Assembly (NCBI RefSeq): GCF_000151315.2
Contig: NW_011887302.1
Span: 686,014-750,013 of the forward strand
Source of the DNA: Capsaspora owczarzaki ATCC 30864
Lineage: Eukaryota > Opisthokonta > Filasterea
Direction of reading: 5' to 3'
DNA: 64,000 bases
Shown here: in pieces, positions 2,126-49,400 of the stretch
How positions within the stretch are numbered: the stretch's first letter is position 1
Layout: each line of letters starts with the position of its first letter
The notes under the pieces: model-generated
Told to the model about the DNA's origin: nothing
What the model saw: the letters and a program-made list of their open reading frames with translations, nothing else
The model's database searches: none
Position numbers and translations under genes: made by a program

Positions 2126-3761
2126 TCCAACTCACTCATACTCGCTCATACACTATTCCACAGATCTGGCAACCTGCTCTGAGCGACATGCTGCTCAGAT
2201 TCCCATTTCGACTTTTGTGTCGACTCATTCTTGTTTCTGTGAGTAGGGTTGGATTTTTTTTATTTATTTATTGAAGTTTTCCTTCCTTTTTCGATTCTTG
2301 TTGTTTTTTCCCCCCCTTCTCAACTCTCGCTCTCTCGACCACGCTTCATCACTGCGTCTCTCTGTCGTTTGAACGGTTTGACATCTCGCCAATGTGCACA
2401 TCCACATCGATGGCGATGGCGTTGAGCTCACGTCAGTTCAAAAGAAAAAAAAAAAAAAAAGACGCGTCTGCAATCTGCATTGAACGAATTTTTTTTCTTT
2501 TCCTTCATTTTTTCATTCAGTCTGTGAATCCTGTTGCACGTCTCGTTGCGCAGCTCGCAGGACGAGCGTCGACTAGCGTGTGTCCACTTGCTGCCTTGAT
2601 CTGCTTCCTCCTCAGCTGCACTGCTTGGGCCGGGTGGAGGGGTTTAACGTTGGCGATCGAACAAGTCTGTTTTTTTTTTTGTTTTTTTTTTTACGATTCG
2701 TTCCACTTGGTGTTTGTTTTCCGTCGCTCTTTGGAACCACGCCGTTCGTCCGTCCACTCAAACGACGTTGCGTCTGCACTTGTCGGGTCGAGTCCTTGGT
2801 GATTGTGTTCGTCCTCACTGCGATCAACTCACTGCGATTCGTGACGTTTCACTGCGCATTTTTCATTGTATTTTTTTTTTTTTTTTTTGGCTATGATTGT
2901 TTGAATGTCCTTCTTTGGTGTTTTTTTTTTTTTTTTTTTTCCCTTCGTTTCGTTTCTTCTCGCTTTTCTTTGATTTTCGATGCCAACGCTTTCTTCAAGC
3001 CAAGCACATGCTTTCGTTTGTTCTTCTTGTTGAACTTTAGAAGAAACGGCGGCTGTGAAGGTTGTTGGACGATTGTTCACAAAATGGAATGCCACAGTCA
3101 GTTAATCGAAATAAATAAAAAAAACAACTCACAAAAAAAAAAAAAAAAAAAAAAAAAATAACGAACCATGACGAAAGTCATCAAATCATCATTTTCAGCG
3201 AAAACAAACACAACAAAAACACTCAAAAAAAGAGAACGAGAACTTTGTATTGATCGCAATCGAAGTTGACGTTCTTATGCATGTTGTGCGTTTGAACAGC
3301 TCAAAAGTGATTGAATGGATGAGTGAATGAGTGAACGAGTGAATGTGAGAGCGTCAGAGTACACAGTCAACAACGGGCACCCCGCATGTGGGCCTTTTTG
3401 ATGAGTTCAGCAATTCTGATGAAAAATTGCTCCATCACCACTTTTATTTTTGTGTGTGGTTTTTGTTTTAAAAAGGCGATCGCATTTCCACTCATTCCCT
3501 CAGTCTTCTTTTTTATCTCTCTCTTTTGTTGGATTCAAACATCACTCCATTCTCTGATTCTTGACTACATTCTATTTCATCATCCACAATTTTTTCGTTA
3601 TTGAAACCCTTCTTTGTTTTCTCTCTCTCTTCTGATTGTATTTCGGTACTGCACACCTTCAAAACACTTTTTTTTGCACCAACTTGCTCGACTCAAACTC
3701 ACTCTGATTGTCACAACTCCTTGTAGTCAATTTTCACACACACACACAACCATCTTAAACC

Positions 3762-6344
3762 ATGGCGTCCAAGTCAAACAACGAGGGCAAGCCCAACCTG
3801 TACCGCATCCCGCCGTACTACTACCTGCACGTTCTGGACCAGAACACGAACATTACACGCGTCGAGGTCGGCCCCAAGACGTTCATTCGCCAGGACCACG
3901 AGAATGTCATTTACGGCCCCGAGAAGATGATTTCAATCCCTCCTCGCAACTATTGCATTATCGAAAACCCGGTTGCGCGCGATGCCAAGGGCGACATTAT
4001 CTTTGAGGACGGCCAGGTCAAGCTGCGCCACGCCGACCAGGAGATTCGCCTCGCCAAGGGCCGCTACGTCGACCCCTTTGCCCTGTACCCCGGCGAAGTC
4101 CTGTTTGGCAAGATCACTCCCCTGCGCACTGTTCCCGCCAACTCTGCCCTGCGCCTTCGCGCCGTCCTCGACTTTTCCGAGGAGGACGGCACCAAGCGCA
4201 CTGCCGGCGACGAGTGGCTCTTTGAGGGCCCTGGCACGTACATTCCCCAGGTCGAGGTCGAGGTTGCCGAGACCATCCGCGCCACCATCATCAAGGCCAA
4301 CCAGGCTCTCAAGCTCCGCGCCCGCAAGGACTGCGTCGACCGCGATGGCGTCGTCCGCGTCACTGGCGAGGAGTGGATTGTGAGCAAGGTTGGTGCCTAC
4401 CTCAACGGCGCCTACGAGGAGGTTGTCGACGTGGTCAACGCCTTTGTCCTGACTGACAAGAAGGCCCTGCACCTGCGTGCCACCAAGACCTTCAAGGACG
4501 CCTACAACCAGGTCCGCAAGAACGGTGAGGAGTGGCTCATCACCCTCAAGGACACTGAGGCGCACATCCCCTCCGTCTACGAGGAGGTTGTTGGCATTAT
4601 CAACATTACCACCATCACCAACCGCCAGTACGCCGTCATTCTCGACCCTGTCGGTGCTGACGGCAAGCCCCAGCTCGGCCAGAAGCGTCTTGTCAAGGGC
4701 GAGACGTCCTTCTTCCTCCGCCCCGGCGAATCGCTCGAGCGCGGCATCCAGAGCGTGCACGTTCTCGGCGAGGACGAGGGCCTGATTCTCCGAGCCAACG
4801 AGGAGTTTGTCGAGCAGGTTCAGGGCGGCGCCAACATTAAGCGCTCCCCCGGTGACCGCTGGATGATTCGCGGCCCCGTCGAGTACGTGCCCCCCGTCGA
4901 GATTGAGGTTGTCTCCAAGCGCAAGGCCATCCCGCTCGACGCCAACGAGGGTATCTATGTCCGCGACACCAAGACCGGCAAGGTTCGCGACATTAAGGGC
5001 ATCACGTACATGCTCAACGAGAACGAGGAGCTTTGGCAGAAGGAGTTGCCCGCCGCTGTCGAGCAGCTGCTCGTCTCTGGCCGCGATCCGCTTGCCGAGC
5101 GCTCTGAGCGCGACCCCCCGGCTGCCGGCAAGGCTCGCGACATGACCCGCATTGTCACCTTCCGCGTGCCTCACAACGCTGCCGTCCAGATTTACGACTT
5201 TAAGGAAAAGAAGGCCCGCGTTGTCTTTGGCCCCGAGCTTGTCATGCTTGGCCCCGACGAACAGTTCACCAAGCTTTCGCTCTCTGGCGGCAAGCCCAAG
5301 CGCCCCAACGTGATCAAGGCGCTGTGCCTGCTCCTCGGCCCCGACTTTTTCACTGACATTATCACCATCGAGACTGCCGATCACGCTCGCCTCCAGCTCC
5401 AGCTCTCGTACAACTGGCACTTTGAGGTCGACCAGAAGAACACTGACGATGCCGCCAAGCTCTTCTCGGTGCCCGACTTTGTCGGCGACGCTTGCAAGGC
5501 CATTGCCTCTCGCGTTCGTGGCGCCGTTGCCTCTGTCCAGTTTGACGACTTCCACAAGAACTCTGCCAAGATCATCCGTGCGTCGGTCTTTGGCATTGAC
5601 GAGAAGGGCAAGGTCCGCGACAAGTTTGTCTTCCCCTCCAACAACCTCTGCATCACCTCGATTGATATTCAGTCCGTCGAGCCCGTCGACCAGCGCACCC
5701 GCGACGCTCTGCAAAAGTCCGTCCAACTCGCCATCGAGATCACCACCAACTCGCAGGAGGCTGCTGCTCGCCACGAGGCCGAGCGTCTCGAGCAGGAGGC
5801 CAAGGGCCGCCTCGAGCGCCAGAAGATTGAGGCTGAGGCCGAGGCCGAGAAGGCTCGCCGATCGCTGCTCGAGCTCCAGGCCCAGTCCGCAGCCGTCGAG
5901 TCCACTGGTCAGGCCAAGGCTGAGGCCCAGTCCCGCGCTGAGGCTGCCCGCATTGAGGGTGAGGCTGCCGTCAACCAGGCCAAGCTCAAGGCCGAGGCCA
6001 TGCGCATTGAGGCCGAGTCCGAGCTCGAGCGCTTGACTGCTGCCCGCGAGGCCGAGACCAAGTACGTTCGCGAGCAGAACGAGCTCGAGATTGTCAAGAC
6101 CCGCGACATGGCCGAGATTGAGACCCGCAAGTTTGAGGACACTGTCAAGGCCCTCACTCCCGAGACGCTCCGCTCCATCTTCTCGGCAGAGAGCGAGTCC
6201 AAGGTCCGTCTGCTCCAGGCCCTCAACCTCCAGTCGACCATTTTCACCGACGGCAACTCGCCCATCAACCTGTTCAACACTGCCAACGGTCTTATCGGTG
6301 CTGCCGGCGCTGCCGGCGCTTCTGGCGCCATTGCCAACAAGTAA
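3762..6344 (+). CDS. MVP: major vault protein
   Basis: A single uninterrupted reading frame of 860 residues, close to the ~890 of animal MVP. MVP is the only structural protein of the vault shell, a large cytosolic ribonucleoprotein of unsettled function. The N-terminal half is a chain of beta-rich MVP repeats (for example [17 protein letters not shown] and later blocks with EEWL/GPxxYxP motifs). About residues 510-640 hold the shoulder (band-7-like) domain, with [17 protein letters not shown]. About 650-800 is the long Ala/Glu/Arg-rich cap helix ([19 protein letters not shown]), which forms the half-vault coiled coil. The tail is Ala/Gly-rich ([15 protein letters not shown]). The ATG sits in ACCATGG and opens [20 protein letters not shown]. 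The gene has no introns, unlike most large genes around it. Downstream neighbours are on the other strand. Confidence 0.97.
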
Positions 6345-31877: not shown

Positions 31878-34800
31878 TCAGTAGCCATCCTTTTGGGGAA
31901 ACGGACCCTTGTTCGGATCTTGCTTTTTGGCGGCCTCAGTGGTCTTTTTGGCATGGCGCTCAGCAAACTGCGGCTCGGCATCCTCAACCACCTTTTCGTT
32001 GGCGGTGGCAATCTTGTCCGATGCCATGGCGTCGACGGCTTGCACGGCAGCTTCATCGTATTGCGCTTGAGCTCTGAGGCGCTCCGGGTTGACATTGGGG
32101 CCTCGGGTGGCAGCTTTCGAAAAGTTGCGCTGAGAGTTGATGTTGCGGATCGCCGTGTCATTGGCTTTGGCAATCTTGTCGGAGGCCATCGTGTCGACCT
32201 CTTCAATCTCAGATGCAATTTCCTGGGTGTAGTCGGCTGCTTTTGCGCGGGGGTCGAGCGTATCGCGAGCGATCGCCTTGACGCCCGACTTGATCTTGCC
32301 GGAAGGTGTCGTGGTTGCCTCGGACGCCGCCATCGCTTTGGACTTGATGCTGTCCACAGCACGCTCCGCCTTATCGGCCATATAGCGAGCTGTCTCTTTA
32401 GTCTCGCCGGTGACATCGGACGACTTGAGCGTCTCGGCAGCGTTCGAAGCCTTCTCAAGAACAGTATCCTTGACGTCTTCCATCTTGTCCGAGACTGACG
32501 AAGCCACAGTCTGAGCCTTCGACTTGACGTTCTCGACAAAGCCCTCTGCCTTCTCGCCAGCTTCACGAGCAGCACCCTTGGCCTCGTTCATCTTGGCCGA
32601 CGCTTCGTACCCGGCGGACTTGGCTTGCGACTTGACATTGTCAGCCACACGCTCAGCCTTGTTGGCCACGTTGCGAGCAGTAGCCTTCGCCTCGCTGGCA
32701 GCATCGGACGACTTGAGAGTCTCGACAGCGTTCGAAGCCTTCTCGAGCACAGTGTCCTTGACGTCTTCCATCCTGTCCGAGACTGACGAAGCCACAGCCT
32801 GAGCTTTCGACTTGACGTTCTCGACAAAGCCCTCTGCCTTCTGGCTAACCTCACGAGTAGCACCCTTGGCTTCATTCATCTTGGCCGACGCTTCGTACCC
32901 GGCGGACTTGGCTTGCGACTTGACATTGTCGACAGCACGCTCAGCCTTGTTGGCCACGTTGCGAGCGGCAGCCTTTGCCTCGCTGGCAGCATCAGACGAC
33001 TTGAGAGTCTCGGCAACGTTCGAAGCCTTCTCGAGCACCGTGTCCTTCACATCTCCAATCTTGTCCGAGACTGATGAAGCCACAGCCTGAGCCTGCGACT
33101 TGACGTTCTCGACAAAGCCCTCTGCCTTCTGGCTAACCTCACGAGTAGCACCCTTGGCTTCATTCATCTTGGCCGACGCTTCGTACCCGGCGGACTTGGC
33201 TTGCGACTTGACATTGTCGACAGCACGTTCAGCCTTGTTGGCCACATTGCGAGCAGTAGCCTTTGCTTCGCTTGCTGCATCGGACGACTTGAGCGTCTCG
33301 ATGGCATCAGAAGCCTTCTCGAGCACAGTGTCCTTGACGTCTTCCATCCTGTCCGAGACTGACGAAGCCACAGCCTGAGCTTTCGACTTGACGTTCTCGA
33401 CAAAGCCCTCTGCCTTCTCGCCAGCCTCACGAGTAGCACCCTTGGCCTCGTTCATCTTGGCCGACGCTTCGTAACCGGCGGACTTGGCTTGCGACTTGAC
33501 ATTGTCAGCCACACGCTCAGCTTTGTTGGCCACGTTGCGAGCAGTAGCCTTTGCCTCGCTTGCTGCATCGGACGACTTGAGCGTCTCGATGGCATCAGAA
33601 GCCTTCTCGAGCACCGTGTCCTTCACATCTCCAATCTTGTCCGAGACTGACGAAGCCACAGTCTGAGCCTTCGACTTGACGTTCTCGACAAAGCCCTCTG
33701 CCTTCTGGCTAACCTCACGAGCAGCACCCTTGGCTTCATTCATCTTGGCCGACGCTTCGTAACCGGTGGACTTGGCTTGCGACTTGACATTGTCGACAGC
33801 ACGCTCAGCCTTGTTGGCCACATTGCGAGCAGTAGCCTTCGCCTCGCTGGCAGCATCAGACGACTTGAGCGTCTCGACAGCGTTCGAAGCCTTCTCGAGC
33901 ACAGTGTCCTTGACGTCCCCAATCTTGTCCGAGACTGACGAAGCCACAGTCTGAGCCTTCGACTTGACGTTCTCGACAAAGCCCTCTGCCTTCTGGCTAA
34001 CCTCACGAGCAGCACCCTTGGCTTCATTCATCTTCGCCGACGCTTCGTACCCGGCGGACTCAGCCTTGTTGGCCACATTACGAGCGGCAGTGACATCGGA
34101 CGACTTGAGAGTCTCGGCAGCATTGGACGCCTTCTCAAGCATAGTGTCCTTGACGTCCCCAATCTTGTCAGAGGCCATTGCGCTAATGTCTTGAAGAACC
34201 TCGCCAACCCGCTGGCCTTGCGCCATCACGTCCTCTGCAGCCGCGGATATACGCGAAACGATGGCATCCTTCGTCTCGGCCAACTTCTCGCCCTGCTTGG
34301 CGACAGTGGACGACAGCGACGACGCCTGCTCGAGCACAGCATCCTTGACGTCTGCAATCTTGTCGGTGGCCATGGAGCCCATGTCTTGGACCGAATTCTT
34401 GAGCTGGGAGGCTGCAGCAACTGCAGGGGAGGCAATGCTTTTGTCGAGTCCGTCCATCGCGTGGCTGCCAACGGCTCCCTCACTCTGTTTGAACGCATCG
34501 GCAGTTTCATCGGCCATGTGCGAGACAGATCCTTTGGCGCGACGCAGCGGAGCGGAAAGAGTGCTCGCGATGGTTTGACGAGCAAAGGCGGCATCGCTGC
34601 GCACTGCGGATGTCGATTGAGCGACCTCATCACGCAGGTGACGCACGAGACCAGTGTAGCCCTCAGGTCCTGGAGACAAGGCGTCCATGTTGACTTGATC
34701 TTGCTGGGTAGCGCGAGCCTCCAGTTCGGCGGCTTCCGGTTGACGCATAAAGTCCTCGTGCGGGATGAAGCCTTCCAAGAGCTCCTTCTTGCTCATCTTC

Positions 34801-35672
34801 GCTTGGGGTGGCCACTGGAGCTGCTTCTTGAGCTCCTTGGATGACATCTCTGGGGGCTTCGGGACAGTTGCCGCAGTACGCACGGGGACGGTAGAGGCAG
34901 ATGAAGGGGCAATGCTCGGAGCAGCTGCACGAAGCAGCGTTGATTTGTGACGAACTTGCTCGACGAGCGTCTGCCCCAGCCGACGAAGCCGCCCGCTTTC
35001 GAGGGGCTCGGACGAGGTGGTTCTGGTTGAAGCCACGCCTGGAATGGGAATGGCGTCGACGGGTGGAGACAGAAACTCTTCCAAGGGCATGGAGGTCGAG
35101 AAGGGTTGATCCGTGTGAGCAGTAGTCGCGGCAGCAGTCGGGTAGCCAGCAGCGTGCGGGCTGCGGTACGTGTAATAATGCTGTCCCGTGCCATGCTGCT
35201 GCTGCACTGGCTTGGACCAAAACGATGATGATGACGACGACGACGAAGAGGCCGATGGCGAACTGCTTGACGCGGGCGCTGGGATTTTGCGTTCTTGTTG
35301 CTCAGACGACGACGCACTCGGACGCTCTTTGTCGGGCGAAGCAGCGACACTGGCATGCATTGAGAAGGCTCGCATGGAGCAGTCAGGCGTGAACGACCTC
35401 AGTCTGCTGGTGTGCGGGCCGACGAGGAGCAGTGATGGCGGTTGCATCGAGGCGAGGGCGGAGGCGGCAGAGGGAAAGTTTGAGAAGAGCGCCGTGCTCA
35501 ACGTGCCCGCGCTCCCACGACGCACTTTAGGCATCGGCGGGGCAGTCTCGCTGCACGAACCTCCGCACGCCAGAGTGCCAGATACAATAGCACGAGCAGC
35601 AGTAACCGCATTGGCGGCAGCGACCCGAGTTGACGTCGCTGACGGTGGTGACCATTGGCGGAGCGCAAACAT
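31878..35672 (-). CDS. giant LEA-like amphipathic-repeat protein
   Basis: An intronless frame of 1,264 residues. The N-terminus (MFALRQWSPPSATSTRVAAA) is Arg/Ser/Ala-rich and lacks acids, like a mitochondrial presequence. Residues ~110-330 are Ser/Pro-rich. The C-terminal two thirds are Ala/Lys/Glu-rich amphipathic helix repeats resembling group 3 LEA proteins. A 96-residue unit contains SSVSDKIGDVKDTVLEKASN, ETLKSSDAASEAKATARNVA and KMNEAKGATREVSQKAEGFV. It is tandemly repeated, with shorter relatives on both sides. LEA proteins protect other proteins and membranes during drying or freezing; here that role, and a mitochondrial location, are inferred from composition only. Large plus-strand open frames over the repeats are antisense shadows. 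Confidence 0.85.
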   Translation of the reverse strand: MFALRQWSPPSATSTRVAAANAVTAARAIVSGTLACGGSCSETAPPMPKVRRGSAGTLSTALFSNFPSAASALASMQPPSLLLVGPHTSRLRSFTPDCSMRAFSMHASVAASPDKERPSASSSEQQERKIPAPASSSSPSASSSSSSSSSFWSKPVQQQHGTGQHYYTYRSPHAAGYPTAAATTAHTDQPFSTSMPLEEFLSPPVDAIPIPGVASTRTTSSEPLESGRLRRLGQTLVEQVRHKSTLLRAAAPSIAPSSASTVPVRTAATVPKPPEMSSKELKKQLQWPPQAKMSKKELLEGFIPHEDFMRQPEAAELEARATQQDQVNMDALSPGPEGYTGLVRHLRDEVAQSTSAVRSDAAFARQTIASTLSAPLRRAKGSVSHMADETADAFKQSEGAVGSHAMDGLDKSIASPAVAAASQLKNSVQDMGSMATDKIADVKDAVLEQASSLSSTVAKQGEKLAETKDAIVSRISAAAEDVMAQGQRVGEVLQDISAMASDKIGDVKDTMLEKASNAAETLKSSDVTAARNVANKAESAGYEASAKMNEAKGAAREVSQKAEGFVENVKSKAQTVASSVSDKIGDVKDTVLEKASNAVETLKSSDAASEAKATARNVANKAERAVDNVKSQAKSTGYEASAKMNEAKGAAREVSQKAEGFVENVKSKAQTVASSVSDKIGDVKDTVLEKASDAIETLKSSDAASEAKATARNVANKAERVADNVKSQAKSAGYEASAKMNEAKGATREAGEKAEGFVENVKSKAQAVASSVSDRMEDVKDTVLEKASDAIETLKSSDAASEAKATARNVANKAERAVDNVKSQAKSAGYEASAKMNEAKGATREVSQKAEGFVENVKSQAQAVASSVSDKIGDVKDTVLEKASNVAETLKSSDAASEAKAAARNVANKAERAVDNVKSQAKSAGYEASAKMNEAKGATREVSQKAEGFVENVKSKAQAVASSVSDRMEDVKDTVLEKASNAVETLKSSDAASEAKATARNVANKAERVADNVKSQAKSAGYEASAKMNEAKGAAREAGEKAEGFVENVKSKAQTVASSVSDKMEDVKDTVLEKASNAAETLKSSDVTGETKETARYMADKAERAVDSIKSKAMAASEATTTPSGKIKSGVKAIARDTLDPRAKAADYTQEIASEIEEVDTMASDKIAKANDTAIRNINSQRNFSKAATRGPNVNPERLRAQAQYDEAAVQAVDAMASDKIATANEKVVEDAEPQFAERHAKKTTEAAKKQDPNKGPFPQKDGY
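32521..34020. repeat. 288-bp tandem coding repeats in the LEA-like gene
   Basis: The same block (TCGACTTGACGTTCTCGACA on the plus strand) begins near 32521, 32809, 33097, 33385, 33673 and 33961, exactly 288 bp apart. This gives five complete units and flanking partial ones. The units are nearly identical at the DNA level, including synonymous positions, which points to recent unequal exchange or gene conversion. Confidence 0.95.
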
Positions 35673-35938
35673 GTTGTTGTTGCTGTTGTTGTTGCTGTTG
35701 TAGGTTGTTGCTGTCGGTAAGCTACGCAGTTGGTTACGCAGTTGGTTGCCTTTGTTTAGCTACAACGTGTCGGACGACAAAATGACTGAGAGGGGAATTG
35801 ATATTCCCCAAAACAACAATGCACTCAGTCAAGTTGTCAGACACATTGTATCCATTTTCAAAACCATTGTTTATTGTTTTTTTTTCTTGGCAACGACGAC
35901 AGCATGCAACTTTTTTTATAACTCTAACGGCAACAAGC

Positions 35939-38900
35939 TCATGCATTGTTCATGGCGTGGGGATTGTGCATGCGCAAAAGTTGGGTGCGCATGGCTTCAA
36001 TCTCATGCATAAGGCGAGCGTTTTCATGGCGAAGAGCCTTGACGTCGGAGCTGGCAGCCTTCGAGCTGTATGGTGTTCCATTCTCGGATTCACTGTCGTG
36101 ACCTGAAGACATTTCAATCTCTGCCGCCTTGGCGTTTTGACTGCCTGACGGTGTCTTGCGGTGGCTTCCGCTGGGATTGTACGTGCTAGTGGCCACGCCA
36201 TCACCCTTGCCGCGAGCGATGAGATAGAACTTTGGCACAAATGAAATCAGCATGGTGATTGGCACGGTGATGAGGACTTCGAGCGACTGCACGGCAAAGT
36301 AAAAGTCTGCGGGACCCGTTGTGGAGTTGAGGATGATTTGCAGAATGACGCCAACCATAATCCAGTTGTACACGGAAATTGCTGCACGCTTTGATCCGTT
36401 GAAGGCGGAAGGTGCCTTGCGAACGCGGTAGCACAGCATGCCGGTAATGAACATGGCAATCAGCTCTTGGATGTACATTGCGTTGTCCCACCATGTCACC
36501 TCACAAACCTCGTAGCTTTCATTGTTGTGCACCATCGTGGTGACCTGGGGAGGATGGGAGACGGACCAAGCCACAAGCATGACGCAGCCGTAGGCGACGA
36601 TGAGCACAAAGCGGAACAGCAGGACGCGGTCTGTCAAGTGGCCCGCGTTGGTGCTGGACTTGGTGTTGAACACGCTTGCAATTCGGTATGTCTTGAGGAA
36701 CAAGGCACCGTAGATCAGGACAAAGCCCAGGTGGCGGGCCCAAATCCGTGCCATGCAAATGCTTTCCGAGAGCTCCTCCTGGTAGTTCAAGATAATCCAA
36801 AACATTGACCAGACGGCGCCAAGCAGCATGAGCAGAAGGAACGTGGGGCTGCCCGAGAGAATGACGCGAACGCGGCGATAGTGGAAGACACCGATGGCAG
36901 CAAGGATGAAGATGAACACTTCAAAGCAGGCAATCGCAACAAAGGCGATGCGAAGAGCCGAAGACACTGACGTCGGGGAAACAAGGCGCGAAGGGTCGGG
37001 CAGGTTGGGCTCCATTGCTGCAAAGTTGGCCAGCACCCACTCGCAGGTGGCCTCTTCCAGCGACTGGCCTCCAAAGTAGACTTGGCCCAAAATGTTGGAT
37101 TGGTCGTTGCCCGAGTAGCTAAACTGGGCGGCAAAGTCGTACACGACCGGGTTCTTTCCGGCAAGGCCGGATGAGATGAGCTTGATGACGGACTGGTCGG
37201 GGTATCCGCAGCGGTTGGCGCTGCTCGCTGTTTAGTTGGATGGCAGTGAGAACGAGCAAGTGAGTGCAAAAGCATTCAACCAGATTGTTGACCGGAACGA
37301 CGAGAGCGAAAAAGCAGCTTACAAATGTTGCAGGTCGAGTCGTACTCGGGCAATTGCATGCGGTGGAATCGGGCTGGGGAGTTGTCTGCAAAGACATAGT
37401 GCGGCTTGGCAGCATACGTGATGAATGGCTGGCGGAGAAAGTACGCGGGTCCGATAACTCCAACCATCGCATCCATCGTCTGGGACACGGTGAGATTCGG
37501 GGAAACTGGGCAGGTGACGTTGAGATTCAAGCCCAAGTTTTCCACCAGCAGGCGATCCATCGGCTGCCAAGAGTCCGGCACCGTCCACATTGTCCCAGGG
37601 GTACTCTCCTCGTCCAATTGGGCATGGACGCGCATGTAGGTCGTAAATGCTTGAACAGCAGCTGCGCAATCCTCGGCAAGAGCGGACGCGTTGACGGCAA
37701 CATTGCAAGCAGGCCCGGCCAGAATGCTGTCAATGTCGTTCACAACAGAGCGAATGGTAGAGTTGTCGAGCTGAAGGCCCGGCGGGATGGAACTCAAGCG
37801 GAAGATGGCTTGGATGCGTTCGTCGCTGTTTGCAATGAGAAGTACAGGTTGTTCGTGAGCGGCAGAGTGGAGACAGAAGCATTTGGTTGGCCTGTACGCC
37901 TTACTAGATTGCAGTGTAGCTGTCCAATAGAGGGCTGACTTCGTAGAGATATTCGGGAATAAACCAGCCAGTTTCGGCAATCACACCAGAGGGACCAGCT
38001 GTGAAAACGAGGTTGGTGGAGGAGGTGGTGAGCATTTTTGTTGTTTTTGGGCAATCCACTGCACGAAAACCTTCGCAATTGATTGGCAACGTACCATTCA
38101 CGACAGAGCGGAGCGTATTGACGTAAAGCTCCATCAGCGACTGGACTTCAGCGTCGGCAGGGTAGGCCTCCAGGAGGAAGTCGTTCGTGTTTGTACCCAA
38201 CGATGCAAACGCGGTTGCGTACGTTTCGTGGACGATCGTGTTTGTGGGCAGACCAAGCTTCTCCTCAATGAGGATTTTGGCAATCATCGCGCTGGTGCGG
38301 GACGAGTCGACGTTCAGGGCGGAAATAGTGATTGGTTCCAGGTCTGTTCGGAGTGGGCCTACGTGTGTGGGATGAAAAATGATATCATTGAGCGGTGTTT
38401 CAACAGGTGAGCTAAAGCCGCAGCAGCATCATCATCATCAACCAGAGTGACACCGTAACACTGGGAGAAATCGGGAAGAGAGCAGCAGAAGCACCGGATG
38501 ATGTCCGAGATCATCATCGATCGCCAAACCGGCTTTTGCAGCTTCTGAACGGCTGTTTTTCCCCCTCCACACGCTATTCCAAGAAAAGAAAGAAAGAAAA
38601 AAAAGACCTGCTTTCCTTTTGGACCCAATTTTTCTGATAGCGGCGCACCCAACCAGAAACCTTCCGATGGCTATTAGGCGTGAAAACGAGAAAAAACCAA
38701 AACAACAAAATATGACAACCATGTGCGATCGAAAGCCGCCAGCTGCCAAGAAGGCGTTCAACATGGAAACCTTTCTCAAGCATGATGCGCATGTACGCGT
38801 TGAGCGAAGCAGCAGAAAGTGTTGTGATGCGGGGGATGGAGAAAACGACAATAATAACAAAACGATCTAGGGCTTGGCCTTAGGGCATTTTTTGAAAAAT

Positions 38901-39026
38901 TACATCTACCGCTAGCAAAAAAACCATGTGAGTCATCTTACGTCGTTCAGCGGCAGGGAAACAGGCGGCAGTGGCAAGGCCTGCCAAAGCGAGCAGAATG
39001 ATGGTGGAGACCACACGACGCGTCAT
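35939..39026 (-). CDS. class C 7TM receptor with OpuAC-like (glycine-betaine binding protein) ectodomain
   Basis: Five exons join in phase: 39026-38942, 38358-38095, 37998-37905, 37825-37323 and 37227-35939, giving 744 residues. Residues 1-21 are a signal peptide (RRVVSTIILLALAGLATAAC). The ectodomain (~25-390) looks like the OpuAC/ProX solute-binding fold: ISALNVDSSRTSAMIAKILI, FLLEAYPADAEV, ETGWFIPEYLYE, RCGYPDQSVIKLI and the typical last helix SLEEATCEWVLAN. Seven membrane segments follow (~405-660): FVAIACFEVFIFILAAIGVF, FLLLMLLGAVWSMFWIIL, through LITVPITMLISFVPKFYLIA. They resemble GABA-B-type class C receptors. The tail has a coiled coil (VKALRHENARLMHEIEAMRT). The first intron (583 bp) is long for this region. 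The intron at 37999-38094 is a multiple of three and fully open, so retention would add 32 residues. Such a receptor would sense a small extracellular ligand through a G protein. Confidence 0.83.
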
Positions 39027-45812: not shown

Positions 45813-46458
45813 AGGTTGAGGTTGACTTTGACCTTGGCAAACGCCCGACAAAATCCTCGAGATCTGCAAATACAGATGTGAAATACTAGAACAAGCGTAT
45901 TCCATTCATTCCCATATCGAACCAGCGCGCATGCTCAGTCTTTTACAACGGTATTCCACTGTCAACTCTTCAATCCTCCGCTCTCGCATCCTCCTTGACC
46001 AACCCACCCAGAGCAAGAGCGCTCCATCGTCATCCCTCTTGATTCCCATCGATCGGTCGCGCCTGTGAGTCGTTGGCTGGTTCCAACCGACTGCGCCCCA
46101 TAAATAGCAAGAGAATAACAATCATAACAAACCCAAACCTGCTTTTGCGGGAATGCGTTTGGCTGCTGTGCATGCGCGAGAGAGCCGGAACAGCCAAGCA
46201 TTCCGAGACACGAGTCGCTTATGGGTAGCTGGGAGCGGCTGGAGCGGACAGAGCGCGAGTGAGGAGTGAGGGGTGAGGGTGAGGGTGTGAAGGTGACGGG
46301 TGCGGGTGTGAGAAGCAACATCAGAACCTAACAAAAATCCTTCACCCGACTCTGCGGCAGTCTATCGAAAACGTTTGTTGCCACATCGTTGGTCGAGGAG
46401 AAGCTCACAGTTATTGCAATCTGCAACTCGAATGATTTTGTTGTGATCAAACAGGCGG
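45638..46458. other. intergenic region
   Basis: This is 821 bp between divergent genes (NTPase minus, receptor kinase plus). It has a CGTTGT hexamer microsatellite at about 45782-45812 and a GTGAGG repeat near 46265-46290. No gene is seen; it should hold both promoters. Confidence 0.5.
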
Positions 46459-49400
46459 ATGCGCATCTTGAATCTGCCGCTGCTCGCGGCGGTCGTTGCG
46501 CTGGCAATGCAGCTGCCAGACTTGGCAAGCACGCAGTCCAACGATTGCCACACGGCTCCACTGCTCAATATCAGTGCTGCTGCTACGTTTTACACGACGC
46601 CATCCGTCACCTACCCGTGCGTGGATGACGATCGTCAAAGCTGCATGGTTTGGAGAATCAGGAGCGCCACTTCGCTGCACTTCATTGTCACATCGTGTGG
46701 ATTCCTGGCTGATTCGTCGTTTGCGATTCGAACCGATTGCAACAATGGACGCTTTGGGGACTCGACACCGCTCGTGTTCAATGACAATCTCGGGGCTACC
46801 TGCGCACATTCATACACTGCAAGCGAAGCCGAAGCCGACATTATTGCCGACACGGACTACTACCTGAGTCTTGGTGGAGTTTCGCTGCCAGCAACGGGAG
46901 GCTTTGGAAGGCCCTATAACTGTGAAGCCGGATCGACAGACCACGACGGGTCGGACCTTGTTACTCACTATTCCACGCCTTGCGTGCCTTGCTCGCCTGG
47001 TCAGTACGTTCCCGCTGCGTCGATTGGAGGTTGCTCAGGTTTCGTTTGCAGCATCGGCACAGTCGATCACGATAGCGACCCATCAACGCCCTGCCTCGTT
47101 GCCGGTCCTGGCAACGACACGACCACTGCTGGGTTGTTTGGTCCCATGGCCAACTTTAAAGTCGTTGCTGGTTCATACGACCACGACAGCAACCCATCGA
47201 CGGCCTCAATCGCCTGTCCCGCCGGCAACTATGCACCCGCGGGCAGCACGACCTGCACCCCTTGCGCTGCTGGCACCTGGGATCACGATGGCACATCGGC
47301 AACCGCGTGCACGAATTGCACCGAATGCGCTCTCGGCTCCACCTACGCATCTGGTGCCTGCACTGCCACCACCGATAGAGTGTGTTCTCCGTGCATCACA
47401 TGCACTCACGGGCACTACCCAAACGCCGAATGCACTTTGACATCCACCGCCACAACGTGTGTGCCATGCACTTCCATCACCAATTGCACAATCACCGGCC
47501 TGACCTGCTCGTCCAGCTCGAACCACCAATGCAGCCAGTGTCAGAGCGGAAGTTACGTGACTGCACAGGGAACGTGCGAGTTGTGTTCCGCCTGTGGCTC
47601 GGGCACCTACGAGACAAGGGCGTGTGACGGCATAGCCAATCGCCTTTGCACCACTCCCGCTGACGCGTCTCCCGTGGCGGCAATCGCTGTTGCTGTGGGT
47701 TCCGTTCTGGGCGTCGGTTTGATTGCGCTCGCCATCTTTCTGGTACGACAACGTCGTCGTCGATTGCAACAATGTTCCGTTGCGCGATCGAGGGACTTTA
47801 CCGGGCCCATTCAGCACGAGACGATCGTCATGAGCATTTCTCCTCTTGCCAAGTCGAACTTGCACTCAACCAAGGAAAGCAATGCACAGCATGAGCTTGT
47901 ACAATCAACTCAGAACACAGAAGACGCTTCGTACGACCTCTTGCAGCAAGTCCCAGAGCATGAGAGCACAGAAAGCGAGAGTCACTATGCGGCTCCAGTG
48001 ACACGTCCGGAGCGTCAGAACGCGGAAGGCGCTTTGCGGTACGAAATGCCAGAAAAGTCTCCAAATCACGAAGACCTGCAAGGACCTGCGCAGTATGCCG
48101 TCCCCGAGACAAACCCTGATCGTCCAAGCTCAGCAAACACTTCAAGATATGAAATGCCCGAGCGCACAAGTCCAGAAGGCGTTTCGCGGTACGAAATGCC
48201 CGAGCGCCAGGGCACAGAAGGTGCTTCTCGGTACGAGATGCCAGAAAAGACCCCCACCGGCGGCCAACACAAGGAAGCCCATGTCCATTACGAAGAGATG
48301 CAGAACGCGCATGTGCGTGAGAACAAAGCCGACATTCCAAGTTATGAAGTGCCAGAAAAGCCCACGTCGGAACCTCTGTACCACGCCGTCTCGTCGACCT
48401 CCCCAGACGACATCTACGACAATGAAATCGTCTACATGACAGGCAGCAACTCTCATCGCATTCGTGAAGGTCTGGCGATTGTCAAGCATTTGGCTAGCGG
48501 CAACTTTGGTGATGTGTCGTTGGGCGAAGTGCCGTTCGCCGTTCTGCCGCCCCGCGCCCAAGGCCTGCTTGGATCTACATCCTCTGAAAAGGTGCAAGTT
48601 GCAGTCAAGTCTCTCAAGTCCAACGCAGACGAGAAATCCCGCAAGGACTTTGAAAGCGAGGCGAGACTCATGGCGCCGTTTGTGCATCCGAATGTTGTGC
48701 ACCTGCTGGCGGCTCTCGTCGAGTCGGAGCCTCATCTCGTATTGATTGAGTTTGTGCGATACGGAGATTTGCGATCATTGCTGGAAACATCGAAAAACAA
48801 GTCGCTCTGGTGGACACAAAACGAGCAGGTTCATGCCGTGCGTCAGATTGCACTGGGCATGGAATATCTTGGCACGCTCCACTTTGTGCACCGTGATCTT
48901 GCCGCACGCAACTGCCTTGTGGGGCAAAACATGGTCGTGAAGATTGCCGACTTTGGTCTTTCTCGCGAGCTGGCGGATGAGAGCGATTACTATCGCATGC
49001 AAACGCGTGGCAAGGTTCCTGCAAAGGTGAGTCGAGGGTGTGCTGGCAGTAAATGTTTGGACGAGGTGATGCTGATTGCAGTTGCTCCTCCTAGTGGATG
49101 GCACCGGAAGCACTCGCTCGCCGGAAGTTTTCTTCAATGTCTGATGTCTGGTCGTTCGGTGTGACTGCCTGTAAGTTCATGGATGTGTGGTGGCGTGCAA
49201 TAGGTGAAGTGTTATCATCTCATTTCCGGCGCCTTTGTACTTTGTAGGGGAATGCTGCAGTTACGGCGACAAGCCATACGGCACGATCGACGCGCGCGAT
49301 ATTTGGGCTCATGTCGAAGCCGGTGGTCGACTGCCCATGCCCGAAAGTTGCTCGCTTGATTTCTACAACTTGATGCTGAGTTGCTGGCACATGTCTCCCG

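What the first reader, a model, noticed from the sequence alone, without database searches (positions are those of the whole stretch)
35939..39026. Class C 7TM receptor whose ligand-binding part looks like a bacterial glycine-betaine binding protein
Seen: a signal peptide, a ~365-residue ectodomain with OpuAC-style motifs (ETGWFIPEYLYE near the middle, SLEEATCEWVLAN at the end), then seven membrane segments of GABA-B/class C style. Established: animal class C receptors use a Venus-flytrap of the LIVBP (type I) group; OpuAC is a type II solute-binding fold. Inference: a different periplasmic-binding fold has been joined to the class C 7TM core, making an osmolyte or quaternary-amine sensor. This is the best candidate here for an under-described system.
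Basis: partly seen in the sequence, partly recalled or inferred. Interest (0 to 1): 0.75.

Follow-up and report, generated by a model that had tools for sequence, protein, structure and literature searches.

The report
Betaine-binding-protein-type class C receptor
In a single-celled relative of animals, a bacterial-style scoop protein for betaine-like compounds has been joined to the membrane part of the receptor family that includes our glutamate and GABA receptors; this is one of twelve such genes found in the genome, and its scoop has lost part of the usual betaine pocket.

Summary
Confirmed: minus-strand gene, five exons, 744 residues, signal-peptide-like start, OpuAC-type ectodomain, full-length 7tm_3 domain, C-terminal zipper-like coil. 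Pfam OpuAC 1.4e-9, 7tm_3 4.3e-37, no ANF_receptor. A profile of 21 bacterial OpuAC proteins hits 3 of 1,488 window ORFs, all from this gene and in order; one holds binding-protein sequence and 7TM in one frame. The type II assignment rests on sequence, not on a model.

The genome (very probably Capsaspora owczarzaki) holds 12 such receptors forming one group. The OpuAC-7tm_3 combination was reported in Allomyces in 2012.

The ligand inference fits the family better than this gene. Six pocket positions are all aromatic in 21 of 21 bacterial rows, and at least five are in 10 of 12 receptors; this gene and one paralogue keep three.

Unexpected: four tandem paralogues have 97-100% identical 7TM domains but 52-64% identical ectodomains, with synonymous sites to match: recombination seems to homogenise the signalling half while sensing halves diverge. 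The window gene shows no such exchange in the three pairs tested.

The parts
35939..39026 (-). whole gene, start codon to stop codon, 5 exons, 744 aa
38942..39026 (-). exon 1: signal-peptide-like start (residues 1 to about 21)
   Evidence: hydropathy peak at residues 5-23; cleavage place inferred, no dedicated predictor run
38359..38941 (-). intron 1 (583 nt, GTAAGA..TAG)
38095..38358 (-). exon 2: OpuAC first part; holds pocket positions V45 (38309-38311) and Y94 (38162-38164)
37999..38094 (-). intron 2 (96 nt)
37905..37998 (-). exon 3: TGWFIPEY motif; 94 nt, same length in 11 of 11 paralogue models
37826..37904 (-). intron 3 (79 nt)
37612..37825 (-). first part of exon 4: stretch that holds the receptor-specific insertion (net about 60 residues) with C188 and C201
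   Evidence: W128-to-W234 distance 105-107 residues in 12 receptors, 36-52 in 21 bacterial rows
37323..37611 (-). rest of exon 4: OpuAC continued; W234 (37567-37569), Y285 (37414-37416), A286-A287 (37408-37413)
37228..37322 (-). intron 4 (95 nt)
37010..37219 (-). last OpuAC stretch, in the same exon and frame as the 7TM
   Evidence: 2e-08 for the stretch
36230..36970 (-). class C seven-transmembrane domain, residues 402-648
35975..36055 (-). C-terminal zipper-like coil (residues 707-733), pattern kept in 12 of 12 receptors
35939..37227 (-). exon 5: end of ectodomain, 7TM, cytoplasmic tail, stop

Best explanation
A class C G-protein-coupled receptor whose extracellular Venus-flytrap is a type II (OpuAC-type) solute-binding domain of bacterial descent. 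A small external molecule closes the two lobes (inferred from bacterial OpuAC proteins); closure in a receptor pair held by the C-terminal coil turns on the 7TM and a G protein (inferred from animal class C receptors). The family's ancestral ligand was probably a quaternary ammonium or sulfonium compound (choline, betaine, DMSP class). This copy has lost three of six box aromatics and probably binds something else, or binds such compounds weakly. Shown: gene, domains, family, pocket residues by alignment. Inferred: fold, ligand class, dimerisation, G-protein coupling.
For: Pfam OpuAC and 7tm_3 above cut-off, no ANF; OpuAC in 12 of 12 receptor ectodomains, ANF in 0 of 12. A profile of the 12 ectodomains finds six PDB sequences at E<=10, all OpuAC-type binding proteins or transporters: 7yle (RnDmpX) 1.2e-16, 4xz6 3.6e-9, 3l6g 3.4e-6, 2b4l (OpuAC) 1.5e-5, 7ahc 3.9e-5, 2reg (choline) 0.02. 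A bacteria-only profile scores 12 of 12 receptors (1.4e-53 to 2.6e-37 in a 12-sequence search, this gene lowest). 30 of 296 genomes of one bacterial phylum match at E<=1e-8. Bacterial locus L080 encodes an OpuAC protein (1.1e-41) beside a BPD_transp_1 permease and a GMC oxidoreductase. Pocket: RnDmpX residues (PMC10030565, passages) mapped; box 6 of 6 aromatic in 21 of 21 bacterial rows and in L070, L071. Full-length 7TM.
Against: No structure of the joined protein was made; the one model (exon 5 alone, no alignment) is poor, mean pLDDT 49.5. No ligand, transcript or G-protein data. The pocket map rests on alignment across an insertion. The bacterial rows were chosen by likeness to the receptors, several are close kin, and their ligands are not known. 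At the DmpX T64 position this gene has T like DmpX, but the 21 bacterial rows have D, N, K or A, and E113 of DmpX is kept in none of the 12 receptors. No NCBIfam model was reached at its cut-off in the member tabulated.
Confidence: 0.75

Rival explanations
1. The receptor keeps its ancestral ligand: it is an osmolyte (glycine betaine, proline betaine or DMSP) sensor, using the remaining aromatics Y94, W234, Y285, with W128 nearby.
For: T74 matches the carboxylate-binding T64 of DmpX; Y285 matches Y200, needed for DMSP binding there; Y94 and W234 are aromatic. Closest solved relative is DmpX.
Against: V45, A286 and A287 replace residues that are aromatic in 21 of 21 bacterial rows and in 10, 10 and 7 of 12 receptors.
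Confidence: 0.2
2. A subunit that no longer binds ligand: it pairs through its tail with a paralogue that does, as GB2 serves GB1 in the GABA-B receptor (recalled).
For: Degenerate pocket while GW..PEY and the cysteines are kept; zipper-like tail in 12 of 12; lowest score of 12 with the bacterial profile.
Against: The ectodomain is still under constraint: against L068 dN is 0.24-0.34 and dS 1.3-1.5 in its three parts, which fits a working binding domain as well as a structural one. Pairing is not shown.
Confidence: 0.2
3. The ectodomain is an ordinary LIVBP/ANF type I flytrap misread by motif.
For: It would be the usual animal arrangement; in the same genome 3 of 5 ANF matches lie beside 7tm_3 matches.
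Against: OpuAC 12 of 12, ANF 0 of 12; the profile finds only OpuAC-type entries in the PDB.
Confidence: 0.01

Closest known systems
Allomyces macrogynus Glutamate-family receptors with OpuAC domains (six sequences; Krishnan et al. 2012, PMC3251606, passages seen)
   Same: OpuAC plus 7tm_3 domain combination
RnDmpX, DMSP-binding protein (PDB 7yle; PMC10030565, passages seen)
   Same: Nearest solved relative of the ectodomain (2.9e-8 single sequence; 1.2e-16 profile); Y200, W152 and T64 equivalents kept
   Different: Binding protein of an ABC importer; of its four box tryptophans this gene keeps W234 and has Tyr at W84, V at W35, A at W202; an insertion of about 60 residues relative to the 21 bacterial rows
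GPR158/mGlyR and GPR179
   Same: Nearest solved 7TM (2e-21, 2e-16)
   Different: No Cache domain found here; OpuAC instead
GABA-B receptor
   Same: Class C 7TM without NCD3G; C-terminal zipper-like coil (the GABA-B coil is recalled)
   Different: GABA-B ectodomain is ANF type I; its 7TM is a more distant match (6.2e-14)
Clustered protocadherins (PMC1852091, abstract and outline seen)
   Same: Paralogues with regional homogenisation by gene conversion
   Different: Adhesion proteins; the comparison is with the C1 array, not with the window gene

Membership tests
Class C GPCR (7tm_3) | Full-length 7tm_3 domain | tested here: met
   128.6 bits, cut-off 33.5, model 2-251 of 251
Class C GPCR (7tm_3) | PKxY motif at end of TM7 (motif recalled) | tested here: met
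   PKFYL or PKLYL in 12 of 12
Class C GPCR (7tm_3) | Type I ANF/LIVBP flytrap ectodomain (usual in animals, not universal) | tested here: not met
   ANF in 0 of 12, OpuAC in 12 of 12
Class C GPCR (7tm_3) | NCD3G cysteine-rich domain (mGlu/CaSR/T1R branch) | tested here: not met
   absent from the Pfam table at E<=10
Class C GPCR (7tm_3) | Acts as dimer, couples to G proteins | not testable with these tools
   only the C-terminal coil pattern was seen
OpuAC (PF04069) solute-binding domain | Profile match above the curated cut-off | tested here: met
   38.4 bits, cut-off 21.2; 12 of 12 ectodomains match at E<=1
OpuAC (PF04069) solute-binding domain | Type II fold shown by structure | not tested
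OpuAC (PF04069) solute-binding domain | Aromatic box for the cationic head group (not needed for Pfam membership) | tested here: not met
   3 of 6 positions aromatic in the window gene; 6 of 6 in 21 of 21 bacterial rows
mGlyR/GPR179 | Cache plus EGF-like ectodomain (PMC12716839 section 9) | tested here: not met
   neither appears in the Pfam table at E<=10
GABA-B receptor | ANF ectodomain | tested here: not met
GABA-B receptor | C-terminal coiled coil (recalled) | tested here: inconclusive
   heptad-like pattern with a shared Asn in 12 of 12; helix with one block at pLDDT 78 in a poor model

The most novel reading that the evidence does not exclude
The 12 receptors are a modular sensing system: recombination repeatedly copies one signalling half (7TM plus zipper tail) across paralogues while the flytraps diverge, so that many ligands feed one output and receptors can pair with each other. 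The window gene and L068 are a branch that left the quaternary-amine pocket for a different ligand class.
Probability: 0.3. Interest if true: 0.75.

Novelty: new member of a known kind. Interest (0 to 1): 0.55.

Why it matters
Animal class C receptors are usually described with type I flytraps. A 12-member family in a close relative of animals with a transporter-derived, OpuAC-type flytrap suggests that the 7TM core accepts a different lobe-closure domain, and gives a natural test of how flytrap closure is passed to the membrane. The nearest solved bacterial relative has a known pocket, so ligand predictions are concrete. I saw no description of a class C receptor array with shared signalling halves and diverged sensing halves, but the search was limited: of which 13 (20 of 160), (20 of 315; 10 of 24) showed only part of their listings; the library lacks most subscription papers, and de Mendoza 2014 is not held.

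Tried and rejected
Type I fold: rejected. Splicing artefact: rejected for the fusion because exon 5 carries both parts (Pfam OpuAC alone does not reach E<=1 on exon 5, the bacterial profile does). Low synonymous divergence of the 7TM as mere codon constraint: rejected, since win-L068, win-L066, win-C1a and L070-L072 differ at half or more of fourfold sites there. L074 (C4:747960) as a paralogue: rejected, weak hit (E 0.48) with no coherent model. Structure of exon 5: too poor; no fold search was run. NCBIfam: choline-binding model in 4 of 12 (best 2.6e-7); for the member tabulated 24.3 bits against a cut-off of 379. Relatives in other eukaryotes: untested; the collections I could scan are prokaryote, phage, plasmid or viral, metagenome contigs had no scans, and I did not scan viral contigs. 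Limits of the models: exon 1 was recovered in 4 of 11 paralogues (L067, L068, L069, C1d); L071's first exon is doubtful, the other six start at exon 2.

Full report
Where it lies. The window is G000:C11:686014-750013 of a 27.46-Mb genome in 29 contigs. The organism is very probably Capsaspora owczarzaki (inference): the size fits (recalled), 3 of 5 ANF matches lie beside 7tm_3 matches on the same strand (C14, C4, C16), and the one Pentaxin match (C8:446866) lies about 3.6 kb from a 7tm_3 match on the same strand (C8:442323-443247). Krishnan et al. 2012 report three receptors with ANF and one with Pentaxin in C. owczarzaki (PMC3251606, passages).

The gene. On the minus strand, five exons with GT..AG introns give a 744-residue protein. 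Pfam finds OpuAC (38.4 bits, cut-off 21.2) and 7tm_3 (128.6 bits, cut-off 33.5), and no ANF_receptor, NCD3G or Cache at E<=10. A profile made only from 21 bacterial OpuAC proteins hits 3 of 1,488 window ORFs, all this gene, in order. The bacterial set had been found with the receptor alignment, so it is not wholly independent, but the profile holds no receptor sequence. The hit in the exon 5 frame and the 7tm_3 domain share one exon and one frame, so the fusion does not rest on a predicted splice. Eleven of 11 paralogues have an intron inside what is one 264-nt exon here.

The family. A search with the ectodomain gave 52 exon-level matches at E<=10. Fifty of them resolve into 12 receptors: this one, two at C11:453-460k, one each on C6 and C9, two on C2, one at C1:2355k, and four in tandem at C1:3120-3135k. 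The other two are L073 and the rejected L074. The 12 form one group in a 7TM tree of 21 rows (support 96/97); the other nine rows include long branches whose placement is unsure. The genome has 34 7tm_3 matches, about 29 places when neighbouring exon matches are merged by eye. All 12 ectodomains match OpuAC. L073 has an OpuAC domain (1.6e-9) in a 663-residue frame with one apparent membrane segment (by eye) and no 7tm_3 match.

Fold and origin. With the 12 ectodomains as a profile, all six PDB sequences found at E<=10 are OpuAC-type binding proteins or transporters. Bacterial relatives: the pattern scan of genome contigs confirmed 2 of 41 candidate stretches; 30 of 296 genomes of the phylum of L080's genome match at E<=1e-8. 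Between the W128 and W234 positions the receptors have 105-107 residues and the bacterial rows 36-52, an insertion of about 60 residues that holds two cysteines present in 12 of 12 receptors. Two further cysteines are shared with bacteria: C313 with 21 of 21 and C322 with 20 of 21 rows. Bacterial descent of the ectodomain is inferred from this likeness; I built no tree of receptors and bacterial proteins together.

Pocket. RnDmpX binds DMSP with W35, T64, W84, E113, W152, A153, Y200 and W202 (PMC10030565, passages). Mapped by alignment, six positions (35, 84, 152, 200, 201, 202) are aromatic in 21 of 21 bacterial rows, several of which are close kin. Position 201 was added by me; it is aromatic in DmpX but not in the paper's list. 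Among receptors, L070 and L071 keep 6 of 6; L072, L066, L067, L069 and the four C1 copies keep 5; the window gene and L068 keep 3. Polar positions agree less: the T64 position is T in 6 of 12 receptors, this gene among them, but D, N, K or A in the bacterial rows, and E113 is kept in no receptor. So the quaternary-amine reading is reasonable for part of the family and doubtful here.

Signalling half. The nearest solved 7TM is GPR158/mGlyR (2e-21), then GPR179 (2e-16), then GABA-B (6.2e-14). The tail ends in a zipper-like coil with the same Asn in 12 of 12.

Homogenised halves. In the C1 array, ectodomains are 52-64% identical and 7TM domains 97-100%. At fourfold-degenerate sites C1a-C1b differ at 64 of 97 in the ectodomain and 12 of 195 in 7TM plus tail (p=1.5e-27). 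All six C1 pairs and two of three pairs among L066, L067 and L069 show this; L066-L069, L070-L071, L070-L072 and the three window pairs tested do not (14 of 66 possible pairs). Among C1a, C1b and C1c identity rises within exon 5 at about +228 nt, near the 7TM start (less sharply with C1d), and falls around the stop codon. Gene conversion or a similar exchange is the simplest reading; ordinary divergence of the 7TM in other pairs argues against codon constraint.

Known or new. The domain combination is in print for Allomyces. The 2025 survey of relatives of animals (PMC12716839; passages and section 9) says non-metazoan receptors have diverse extracellular domains; its text has no occurrence of OpuAC, but its supplementary tables, which I could not read, may list it. 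Only PMC3251606 holds both 'OpuAC' and 'protein-coupled receptor'; PMC7952708, off topic by its title, holds 'OpuAC' and 'GPCR'. I therefore call it a new member of a known kind, with the array pattern as the more novel part.

Noticed in passing
L064, L065 (G000:C1:3119900-3135800): Four tandem OpuAC receptors with nearly identical 7TM and tail but strongly diverged ectodomains, as if the signalling half were kept alike by gene conversion.
   Followed up: yes
L066, L067, L069: The same pattern, weaker, in two neighbouring genes on C11 and partly with one on C2, so exchange may also cross contigs.
   Followed up: partly
window 38095-38358: Exon 2 is a single exon here but split by an intron in 11 of 11 paralogues: an apparent intron loss in the window gene.
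   Followed up: partly
L073:818-2809 (minus): A 663-residue frame with an OpuAC domain, one apparent membrane segment and no 7tm_3: a possible single-pass OpuAC receptor.
   Followed up: partly
window 31878-35759 (minus): 1,293-aa frame next to the receptor, same strand, with several long near-identical repeats; only matches below Pfam's cut-off, best Apolipoprotein. Looks LEA-like (recalled, not tested).
   Followed up: partly
window 3759-6341 (plus): Major vault protein by Pfam.
   Followed up: no
window 46447-49161 (plus): 905-aa frame with a TNFR-like cysteine-rich stretch (29.0 bits, cut-off 29.4) and a protein kinase domain: a possible receptor kinase.
   Followed up: no
L080:121-4831: Bacterial OpuAC gene beside an ABC permease and a GMC oxidoreductase (choline-dehydrogenase-like by recall), which hints at a choline or betaine ligand for this bacterial relative.
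   Followed up: partly
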